A stretch of DNA of 64,000 bases. Origin: Candidatus Poribacteria bacterium. Lineage in GTDB: Bacteria; Poribacteria; WGA-4E; WGA-3G. A program made the position numbers and the translations under genes. The stretch lies in assembly GCA_012270795.1 (NCBI GenBank), contig JAAXHO010000219.1:35042-99041 (forward strand), given 5' to 3'. The notes beneath the pieces were generated by a model. It ran no database searches, was not told the origin of the DNA, and was given only the letters and a program-made list of their open reading frames with translations. Below, one piece after another: positions 12,171-15,775 of this stretch. The first letter of the stretch is position 1. Each line of letters begins with the position of its first letter.

Positions 12171-12210
12171 ATCTCATAAATGCATTTTTGTCCAAATACA
12201 CCGAATCGCG
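12171..12210. repeat. Left half of an interrupted TCTCATAAAT...ATTTATGAGA hairpin repeat
   Basis: ATCTCATAAATGCATTTTTGTCCAAATACACCGAATCGCG aligns with the uninterrupted copy at 48513-48610. Confidence 0.75.
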
Positions 12211-12615
12211 GGTGTGTAAAGTTTTTGTTACCTTTTGTGTACGGAATCTCGAATTTTTCGGTGGGCGCGGCGTGTGTGCGGAATCTCGGAAAACGCGGAA
12301 AAGACCGCTGCCACGGATCGCCTTGCTTAGTTATGGGTTATTCTTTGCAATAAATGTTCATGAAGGTGTCTTTTCCGCGTCTTCCGTGTACTCCGCGCAT
12401 TCCGCGATTCCGAACCCAGATCCGCAAAACCCGACAATTGAATGCCTCTGTATTTTTCATGAGTCCTCCTTATCAGGGAACTCCATCTTTGCACGCCATC
12501 ACATGCGCGTATGGCATGCAAATTGAGGGACAAGGGGATAAGATAAAAAAGGCAGATACCCTTTCGGATACCTGCCTATGTTTATCTATATCGTCACTAT
12601 CAATGAAAGGACACC

Positions 12616-14215
12616 TTAGGGGCCAATATCTATTTCAAAAGTTAGATTATAATTTGAACCATCTGATAACCTTTCCACGCGTGCTATCAGGGTGTAGGAC
12701 GTATAGGATTCTATGCTGTTCTCTGACGAGAACGTGTACGTTAAAGTGCCTTCAGTTTTGTTAGGACCGCCGGAATTGGCATACAACCACGTGCCAAGTC
12801 CAGTTTCACCTTCTTCCAATAGGTACCAATTTATCTCAAAGTAATCGGAATCCGCTATCGCCTTAAACTTATGCGTTTCTCCAAGTCCCCAAACGAAAGG
12901 AGGGGAGGTTGTGTGGTGCAACCCTGGTGTAGTCGGTTGGGGTGAGGATGGAGTGGTTGATGCAGTCTCATCATCGTCCGAATCGCCAGCATCCTGTGAA
13001 CCGCATCCAGGACAACGATCACTCCCATCTATACACGTATCACAACTAGGGGTTTCGTCGGGTATAACAGCGTCAACGCCAACGCCATTTTCACCATGAA
13101 CAAGCAGTTTGTCAACCTTCGCTGTTGGAGGCGTTGTACTACCACGATGCCTTGTCTTCGTATAAGGAATATTAACACTATGTTCATATTCTTTGGCTTG
13201 ATACCCGCTCATATATTTCTTACCGTTAGACTTGCTATACACAGGTACGTAGTTATGAACGCCACTACGACTTGTTGAATCGTAACAGTCACGGAAAGGT
13301 GCACCACAGATACCCACCCGCTTAGCTAATGAAAGACCACCAGGATGCCAAGCAATATAACTATTACAATATTTGACAGCATGTTCTCTCTGCTTCGCTT
13401 CATAATTATTTTGGCAGGTATAATACGAACGACCACATCCAGCAACACTCGGATTCGGGTCTTTATCACCACCGCAATAATGCGGTGATCTTCTAACGCT
13501 TTATACGGCGTATCGTATGTATCATCACAGACGGATGAGAGAAGCCCATTCCCCTTACAGGCCCAGGTTGGATAAATAGCGGATGGCAGCGTGTATGATT
13601 TATAAATGTGTAGGTAAGTCATTATCTCGGACTCTGAAGTCGTTGGCAGTGCCTTCCAACGATCAAGCACCAAATCAGCCATATTATACATCCGTTGCCA
13701 TTGCGACAGTCCCGCGCTAAATTTCGGTATATGTGCATTGACCTCCTTACATGCTAATGCATACTTCTGCTCTCTATCAATCTTGCCTTTCATATCTAAC
13801 AGTTCATTAACGGCAGTTACGAGAAGCCCCGAATAATTTTGTGTCAGAACCTGTTCAGCGGTTGAAGAAAATTTTTTGGTCTTATTTTTCCAATTCCAAC
13901 CCCCGTATGCCGCTGTTTCGGATGCCGTCCGCTTTTCCGTTAAAAATCTGCTTTCGTTCCGAAGTTCTTGAACGTTGTCTCTGCAACTGTTAGACCACTG
14001 GATGAGTGCCTTTACAGTTTCCTTTGGATGAGTGCCTTTACAGTTTCCTTAGATGGAGTCACATACATAGGGTCATTATTCAGCTGCTCATCAGTGGGTT
14101 CGTTTTCAAAAACGAGGATCCCATCATACTCGGCATCCTCGGCAAAAACGCCACTGCTGAACATAACAAATAATAGGGCAAGGATATGGAGAAAAAGAAA
14201 GTGTCGTCCTCTCAT
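12616..14215 (-). pseudogene. Secreted Cys-containing protein gene, disrupted by a 26-bp tandem duplication and a second frameshift
   Basis: ORFs 14012-14215 (signal peptide), 13326-13793 and 12616-13317 are successive parts of one reading path; joins reconstructed by hand translation. Confidence 0.75.
13999..14050. repeat. Perfect 26-bp tandem duplication
   Basis: TGGATGAGTGCCTTTACAGTTTCCTT at 13999-14024 and again at 14025-14050. Confidence 0.95.
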
Positions 14216-14901
14216 TGTTTTCCTCCATCATCTGATGCCTTTTTAGGCGGTTTTGTGTTAATAAACACTGCTGAGGACTCTTCCGTTGCCGGAATAATCC
14301 GAGGAACCGGGAATTCCTTCCTATGTTCTTTTTCCATTTCCTCCATAATTGCGTCTATTCTATCGTTCTTTTCATCCATTATTTTATACAGTATGGGAAT
14401 CGTTGCGTTATACAACCGCACTCCTGCCTCAAAATCTGTTTCGCCTAATTCATTAGATGCCTTTGTGTATAGTCTCGCCAAATGGAGAAGAACATCTAAG
14501 TCCATCTGTCGCAACTCTTCCTCTGCCGGAAACTTTTCGGGGATTTCATCAGGTAAATCTGATTGCATTTCAACTAATTGTGGCACACCACCAATAGGCG
14601 TTTGTTCTATCGTTTCGCCTTGTGTGATTTGCATTTCGTGCCAGTGGTCTCCGTGCCATTCCCACACGTATCCTTCTCTTGCAGTACCCGGCGGTGGCCC
14701 TGGAGGGGTCCCTATTGCAACGTGTTTGGTTGTTTTCTTTTTCTCAGCTGCTTTGTCCAGTGCCTCCAATTTTCTATCGTACCTTTCACGTTCTTTTTCC
14801 ATTTCTTTTTTGAAGTTTGCGTGATCTATTTGTGTCCAAATCATAATTCCACCAAAGATAACAATAAGGACTCCAAATACCCAATAAGTTGCTTTGTTCA
14901 T
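14212..14901 (-). CDS. N-terminally membrane-anchored protein with GYVWEWHGDHWHE motif
   Basis: N-terminal TM MNKATYWVFGVLIVIFGGIMIW, coiled coil, GPPPGTAREGYVWEWHGDHWHEM; stop overlaps the next cargo gene's start. Confidence 0.75.
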   Translation of the reverse strand: MNKATYWVFGVLIVIFGGIMIWTQIDHANFKKEMEKERERYDRKLEALDKAAEKKKTTKHVAIGTPPGPPPGTAREGYVWEWHGDHWHEMQITQGETIEQTPIGGVPQLVEMQSDLPDEIPEKFPAEEELRQMDLDVLLHLARLYTKASNELGETDFEAGVRLYNATIPILYKIMDEKNDRIDAIMEEMEKEHRKEFPVPRIIPATEESSAVFINTKPPKKASDDGGKQ

Positions 14902-15420
14902 TACTTTATTTTCCTTATAAGTTTTTTTATCCCTGTGATCTATTCCACATTATTAGATTATATATACTTCTTGTCCAAATTTCAAACATATTCTGCACAT
15001 TGTGTGTTTGTTGTGCAAGAATATGCCCTATGTTTAGTATAATAAGATGCATTGAAGTATCCCTCAATGCAACAACAATAGCCCGCGACGAAACGTGCGG
15101 GCACAAAAACATCGCAAACAGGAATGCTTGCGATAAGACTTTGTAATTGACAAATATTAACGAATGTGAAATTTCGAGGGGGTAACCGAAGGTTAAATTG
15201 AGGCTCGATCATGTAATGAACACTTGACGTTTTCATTTTTTGAAACTGAATTGTAATGTTCACATGTCGCTGCTTCATTTCAAAATCCCCATATTAAAAT
15301 TCTGATTTTAAAATGTCAAATTAATTTTGAAGAAAAATCACAAATTTTGCATTATTTTTGCTCTTTTTCCTCAAAATTATACACAAACGCTCAAATTTTG
15401 TCAATTTTTTCAGGATTATT

Positions 15421-15720
15421 TGGGTGTGTAAAGTTTTTGTAGAAACATTGATATGACTTTTGTTCGCCATATTTTTTCTCGTATGTCTATAGTCTTTTCA
15501 CTTGTCTGAACCAGGATTTGCAGGATTTCCAGATTTCCAGGATTATGAGTTTGAGGTATAACGCACCGTTCATAAGTTGGCATAAATCTGTGTAAAAAAC
15601 TATTGATGAGGAAAATCCTGGAAATCTGGAAATCCCGGGGAATGCCATAAGGCATTCATACCGTTGATTTGGAAATCCTGCAAATCCTGGTTCAGACAAG
15701 TAACCAAAACTTTACACACC
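15421..15720. repeat. 300-bp imperfect palindrome forming the right end of the composite element
   Basis: ACTTGTCTGAACCAGGATTTGCAGGATTTCCAGATTTCCAGGATT paired with AATCCTGGAAATCTGGAAATCC...AAATCCTGCAAATCCTGGTTCAGACAAGT, bounded by GGGTGTGTAAAG and CTTTACACACC. Confidence 0.8.
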
Positions 15721-15775
15721 CCGAATCGCGCGTATGGTAAATCGGGGTTAGAAACCCCTCCTACGATTTATGAGA
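15721..15775. repeat. Right half of the interrupted TCTCATAAAT...ATTTATGAGA hairpin repeat
   Basis: CCGAATCGCGCGTATGGTAAATCGGGGTTAGAAACCCCTCCTACGATTTATGAGAG matches the right part of the 48513-48610 copy. Confidence 0.75.

What the first reader, a model, noticed from the sequence alone, without database searches (positions are those of the whole stretch)
12201..15730. 3.5 kb transposase-less composite element with TIRs and a 10-bp target duplication, carrying a two-gene cargo
Seen directly: 12211 begins GGTGTGTAAAGTTTTTGTTAC, and the segment ends at 15720 with the inverted sequence GGTGTGTAAAGTTTTGGTTAC (20/21 match). Immediately outside both ends is the same direct 10-mer CCGAATCGCG. Joining the outer flanks rebuilds a hairpin repeat (TCTCATAAAT...CCG...GGTAAATCGGGGTTAGAAACC..CTCCTACGATTTATGAGA) that exists uninterrupted at 48513-48610. 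That is an empty-site paralog. The interior holds a membrane-protein gene (14212-14901) and a broken secreted-protein gene (12616-14215), with no recognisable transposase. Inference: a large MITE-like carrier mobilised in trans.
Basis: partly seen in the sequence, partly recalled or inferred. Interest (0 to 1): 0.8.

Follow-up and report, generated by a model that had tools for sequence, protein, structure and literature searches.

The report
Transposase-less gene-carrying jumping element
In a sponge-associated bacterium of the candidate phylum Poribacteria, two surface-type genes sit inside a 3.5-kb mobile element that has proper ends and a target-site scar but no transposase of its own, and the same ends occur in up to hundreds of copies per related genome, usually empty but sometimes carrying other genes.

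Summary
Joining the flanks with one repeat copy rebuilds a member of a hairpin repeat with about 45 matches in the genome. The ends belong to a large Poribacteria-specific family: 153 exact 15-mer copies in this genome (0 for the reversed control), present in 17/17 congeners. Of 118 short end pairs, 28 have 8-9-bp duplications (0.3 expected). Most are empty 130-420-bp MITEs.

Gene-carrying members recur. A complete relative genome has a 1.58-kb element with an orphan 298-aa gene: three copies with perfect 9-bp duplications, plus a rearranged one. Another genome has a 2.26-kb element with an orphan 310-aa gene.

The window element is a composite: left end plus palindrome, A-B gene module (B frameshifted twice), and a complete 300-bp MITE as right end. 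The A-B module occurs in relatives without these ends. No transposase with these ends was found (IS256-, IS1-, IS4/IS5-type domains searched). It fits the known mobile-insertion-cassette / MITE-composite kind, with an unidentified trans-acting transposase: orderly, but not a new category.

The parts
12163..12209 (+). left half of the interrupted hairpin repeat (insertion target)
   Evidence: matches the multi-copy hairpin family; joined flanks give full-length repeat
12202..12209 (+). left target-site duplication CGAATCGC (10-mer CCGAATCGCG = 12201-12210)
12210..12231 (+). left terminal inverted repeat GGGTGTGTAAAGTTTTTGTTAC
   Evidence: 153 exact 15-mers genome-wide
12232..12439 (+). imperfect palindrome (CGGAATC type) of the left MITE end; no inner TIR
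   Evidence: same TIR-palindrome-3' region junction in L070 and L215 at unrelated sites
12440..12600 (+). conserved 3' region of the gene module including a terminator hairpin; 86-89% identical to L070, L215, L216
12616..14215 (-). gene B, predicted secreted protein, broken by two frameshifts
13999..14050 (+). 26-bp tandem duplication at the first frameshift in gene B
14212..14901 (-). gene A, 229 aa, N-terminal membrane segment, GDHWHE motif; orphan family
14955..15417 (-). conserved leader upstream of gene A, shared with several paralogous loci
15422..15721 (+). complete 300-bp MITE forming the right end; its inner TIR is 15422-15440
15700..15721 (-). right terminal inverted repeat
15722..15729 (+). 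right target-site duplication CGAATCGC
15730..15784 (+). right half of the interrupted hairpin repeat
48513..48610 (+). uninterrupted paralog of the hairpin repeat

Best explanation
12210-15721 is a non-autonomous transposable element that carries genes. Its two ends are those of a large poribacterial MITE family. The unit (left end with palindrome, A-B gene module with leader and terminator, right-hand MITE) was cut or copied as one piece by a DDE-type transposase encoded elsewhere. It was inserted into a hairpin repeat between groES and a rhamnose-isomerase-like gene, duplicating 8-9 bp of target. It works like a mobile insertion cassette: passenger genes between ends that a transposase recognises in trans. 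Shown: ends, duplication, rebuilt empty site, absence from the nearest relative's spacer, other gene-carrying members with duplications, A-B module without these ends in relatives. Inferred: movement as one unit, the DDE chemistry, and the identity and location of the transposase.
For: Ends and duplication. 153 exact end copies, reversed control 0. 8-9-bp duplications at 28/118 short pairs, 0.3 expected. Joined flanks equal the hairpin consensus with one duplication copy. In relatives the first 1.5 kb upstream of the orthologous rhaI-like gene has no match to the element, and G013 keeps groES next to it. Independent gene-carrying elements: L266 659-2915 with ATATGAGAG x2; G009 261514-263095, 4772276-4773866 and 4673783-4676513 with ATTTATCTG, GCATAGATT and GGTGATTCA x2. 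The left TIR-palindrome-3' region junction recurs in L070 and L215 with unrelated flanks. The A-B module sits without TIRs next to one conserved gene in G006 and G012.
Against: No transposase with these ends was found, so mobilisation in trans is by exclusion. The duplication register is 8 or 10 bp, not the family's usual 9. Most end pairs lack a duplication (90 of 118), and in 0.8 Mb of G009 the overall excess is weak (2 of 25 short pairs, 0.17 expected). The right MITE has no duplication of its own, so internal changes after insertion cannot be ruled out. G013's spacer also lacks the hairpin, so it is not an exact empty site.
Confidence: 0.82

Rival explanations
1. A short MITE inserted first into the hairpin and made the duplication; the gene module and the second MITE came in later by recombination or insertion between its ends.
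For: The right 300 bp is a complete MITE with its own inner TIR and no duplication of its own. MITE ends are mosaic in this family. L070 has a MITE inserted inside the same leader.
Against: The left TIR-palindrome-3' region junction already exists at other, unrelated sites (L070, L215), so left end and module belong together before insertion. Other gene-carrying elements have perfect duplications.
Confidence: 0.12
2. Two unrelated MITEs happen to flank a resident module, and the direct repeat is coincidence.
For: MITE ends are dense in these genomes.
Against: A 10-bp direct repeat exactly at both ends and an intact hairpin after joining are very unlikely by chance. The shuffled null for pairs over 1 kb is 0.2 duplications in 38 pairs.
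Confidence: 0.03
3. A passenger protein of these elements is itself a new kind of transposase, so some members are autonomous.
For: The 1.58-kb G009 element looks like an insertion sequence: one ORF, several 95-98% identical copies, perfect 9-bp duplications.
Against: The 298-aa protein is predicted all-helical with no RNase-H fold and no PDB match at E <= 0.001. The L266, L383 and window cargo proteins are unrelated families. The gene occurs without TIRs in G000 (L411).
Confidence: 0.03

Closest known systems
Mobile insertion cassette (MIC231 of Bacillus cereus; mic-qnrD of Proteeae, PMC3913671)
   Same: Inverted-repeat ends, passenger gene in place of a transposase, target duplication; MIC231A1 is mobilised in trans by the IS231A transposase (as reported in PMC3913671).
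   Different: The parent insertion sequence is unknown here, the ends form a family with up to about 225 exact copies per genome, and passengers are orphan poribacterial genes rather than enzyme or resistance genes.
MITE-bounded composite elements (TIME-COMP, PMC13367494; MITE-flanked integrons cited in PMC6382973)
   Same: A MITE end at each side mobilises the sequence between.
   Different: Here only the right side is a complete MITE; the left side lacks its inner TIR. Duplications are 8-9 bp, and no resolution site or Tn3 relation was tested.
Bacterial MITEs such as MITEAba12 (PMC6382973)
   Same: Short elements with about 16-bp TIRs and 9-bp duplications, no coding sequence.
   Different: MITEAba12 shares TIRs with resident ISAba12; no resident element with matching TIRs was found here.
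Pack-MULE type elements of plants (from general knowledge)
   Same: Non-autonomous elements that carry host genes between TIRs with 9-bp duplications.
   Different: Bacterial; the transposase family was not identified, and no Mutator/IS256 transposase was found in the genus apart from fragments on small contigs that look like contaminants.

Membership tests
Mobile insertion cassette (MIC) | two inverted repeats of insertion-sequence type | tested here: met
Mobile insertion cassette (MIC) | passenger gene(s), no transposase gene inside | tested here: met
   cargo ORFs match no transposase model
Mobile insertion cassette (MIC) | target-site duplication | tested here: met
Mobile insertion cassette (MIC) | ends shared with a known insertion sequence whose transposase acts in trans | tested here: inconclusive
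   PF00872, PF03400, PF01609 and multi-copy elements in 0.8 Mb of G009 give no IS with these ends; other families not searched
MITE composite (TIME-COMP-like) | a MITE at each end | tested here: inconclusive
   right end complete MITE 15422-15721; left end lacks its inner TIR
MITE composite (TIME-COMP-like) | Tn3-type ends and 5-bp duplication | tested here: not met
   8-9-bp duplications
Composite transposon of two IS | flanking autonomous insertion sequences | tested here: not met
   flanking units are non-coding
IS256/Mutator-derived element | related transposase present in the genome or genus | tested here: not met
   0 matches in own genome; 2 of 59 family genomes, fragments with no such TIR nearby
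IS1-derived element | IS1 transposase bounded by the same TIR | tested here: not met
   IS1 copies in G009 have TIR GAGGGTGTTAACTAA; none with this TIR
IS4/IS5 (DDE_Tnp_1)-derived element | transposase bounded by the same TIR | tested here: inconclusive
   none in own genome; 30 of the many loci in the genus inspected, none with this TIR bounding the gene

The most novel reading that the evidence does not exclude
The hundreds of copies and perfect recent duplications in genomes without a recognisable matching transposase mean that Poribacteria harbour an undescribed transposase family that mobilises MITEs and gene-carrying cassettes across the group, a bacterial counterpart of gene-capturing Pack-type elements.
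Probability: 0.18. Interest if true: 0.7.

Novelty: new member of a known kind. Interest (0 to 1): 0.45.

Why it matters
Poribacteria are uncultured sponge symbionts whose genomes carry expanded families of unusual secreted proteins. A high-copy end family that moves unrelated passenger genes without a transposase nearby gives a concrete route by which such genes spread, and a clear search target for the missing transposase. It also shows that standard insertion-sequence annotation can miss a main mobile component of these genomes.

Tried and rejected
Parent transposase: PF00872 (own genome and 59 family genomes), PF03400 and PF01609 (18 genus genomes) gave no gene bounded by these TIRs. Two look-alikes were checked and dropped: IS1 with TIR GAGGGTGTTAACTAA, and a DDE_Tnp_1 insertion sequence with TIR TGAGGGGTGTGCATAA whose duplications look about 6 bp and AT-rich. 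The 298-aa passenger as transposase: all-helical model, no fold match. Rfam on 11900-16000: nothing. TIR 18-mer in viral contigs: none. Insertion preference for the hairpin: only the window copy found. G013's spacer is not an exact empty site, because the hairpin is missing there and another decayed MITE is present.

Full report
What is there. Window 12210-15721 has inverted ends GGGTGTGTAAAGTTTTTGTTAC / GGGTGTGTAAAGTTTTGGTTAC and a direct repeat at both outer borders. The end motif is far beyond chance: 5 window matches against 0.01 expected, and 153 exact 15-mers in the 5.18-Mb draft genome with none for the reversed control.

The family. The motif is in all 17 congeners (1 to 225 exact copies), in many genomes of a second genus of the same family, and almost nowhere in sampled genomes from order level up. 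Record titles name the hosts as Candidatus Poribacteria; the few other titles are mostly single hits. Across all fetched loci, 28 of 118 short end pairs have 9-bp (24) or 8-bp (4) duplications against 0.3 in shuffled pairs. In 0.8 Mb of one complete chromosome the overall excess is weak (2 of 25, 0.17 expected), so most copies there are old or rearranged. Typical members are non-coding, 130-420 bp, with several kinds of palindromic interior and mixed ends.

The insertion site. The flanks lie in two halves of a roughly 100-bp hairpin repeat with 45 matches in this genome. Joined with one copy of the 10-mer they align with 20 other copies without gap or surplus at the junction, apart from one longer copy. 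The nearest relative with groES beside the rhaI-like gene, G013, has a spacer without the 3.5 kb, without the hairpin, and with a different decayed MITE. The other inspected relatives show no match to the element in the 1.5 kb upstream of that gene.

The interior. From left: a CGGAATC-type palindrome without inner TIR; a conserved 3' region with terminator; gene B, broken by two frameshifts, one at a 26-bp tandem duplication; gene A; a conserved leader; and a complete MITE with its own inner TIR at 15422. Genes A and B form a pair in relatives G001 and G012, and partly in G006, without these TIRs; in G006 and G012 the pair sits next to the same conserved gene. In this genome, other loci share the leader and 3' region at up to about 93% identity but hold quite different genes. 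At two of them (L070, L215) the junction TIR-palindrome-3' region is the same as in the window while the outside DNA differs, so the left end and the module were joined before this insertion.

Other gene-carrying members. L266 659-2915 (SB0202) is 2257 bp with ATATGAGAG on both sides and a 310-aa orphan gene. The 298-aa protein has no Pfam match above cut-off and no PADLOC match, and its predicted structure is all-helical without a solved relative, so it is more likely a passenger than a transposase.

Mechanism. The features are those of a transposon end pair used in trans: inverted ends, short fixed-length duplication, interior irrelevant to movement. No transposase with these ends was found: IS256-type, IS1-type and 30 of the many DDE_Tnp_1 loci were checked, and multi-copy elements in 0.8 Mb of G009. 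This draft genome has no match to any of the three domains. The transposase may be in an untested family, in parts lost from the draft, or in another lineage.

Comparison. By anatomy it meets the definition of a mobile insertion cassette (PMC3913671) and resembles MITE-bounded composites (PMC13367494). The test 'ends shared with a known insertion sequence' is open. It is therefore a new member of a known kind, from a phylum where I found no such description: in the one poribacterial genome paper I searched (PMC3909097), 'transposase' occurs once and 'inverted repeat' not at all.

Noticed in passing
window 14955-15417 and L070, L088, L095, L100, L217-L223: A conserved leader with several hairpins precedes divergent genes in many loci, with a conserved 3' region behind them; the coding parts differ strongly. 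Looks like an expanded surface-protein module with swapped contents. No Rfam match for the window copy.
   Followed up: partly
window 48513-48610 and about 45 matches in the genome: A roughly 100-bp hairpin repeat family (TCTCATAAAT...ATTTATGAGA, GGGGTTAGAAACCCC core), probably a second mobile or REP-like repeat.
   Followed up: partly
window 63412-64000: Left part of another, longer non-coding member of the same end family, cut off by the window edge.
   Followed up: no
window 52222-52242: Single right-type end directly after a terminator-like hairpin, no partner within range.
   Followed up: no
L092 (G059:C24) 7534 and 9671-9916: The only exact end copy in this same-order genome lies about 2 kb from a gene-A homolog; no partner end found.
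   Followed up: partly
L423 3165, L424; L377 19259 onward: A multi-copy DDE_Tnp_1 insertion sequence with TIR TGAGGGGTGTGCATAA interrupts one copy of the 1.58-kb element; its end resembles the MITE end but its duplication looks about 6 bp.
   Followed up: partly
L148, L153 (G009): IS1-family copies with TIR GAGGGTGTTAACTAA, similar in the first bases to the MITE end.
   Followed up: partly
G000 whole genome: No match to PF00872, PF03400 or PF01609 although relatives have dozens of PF01609 matches; may be a draft-assembly effect.
   Followed up: no
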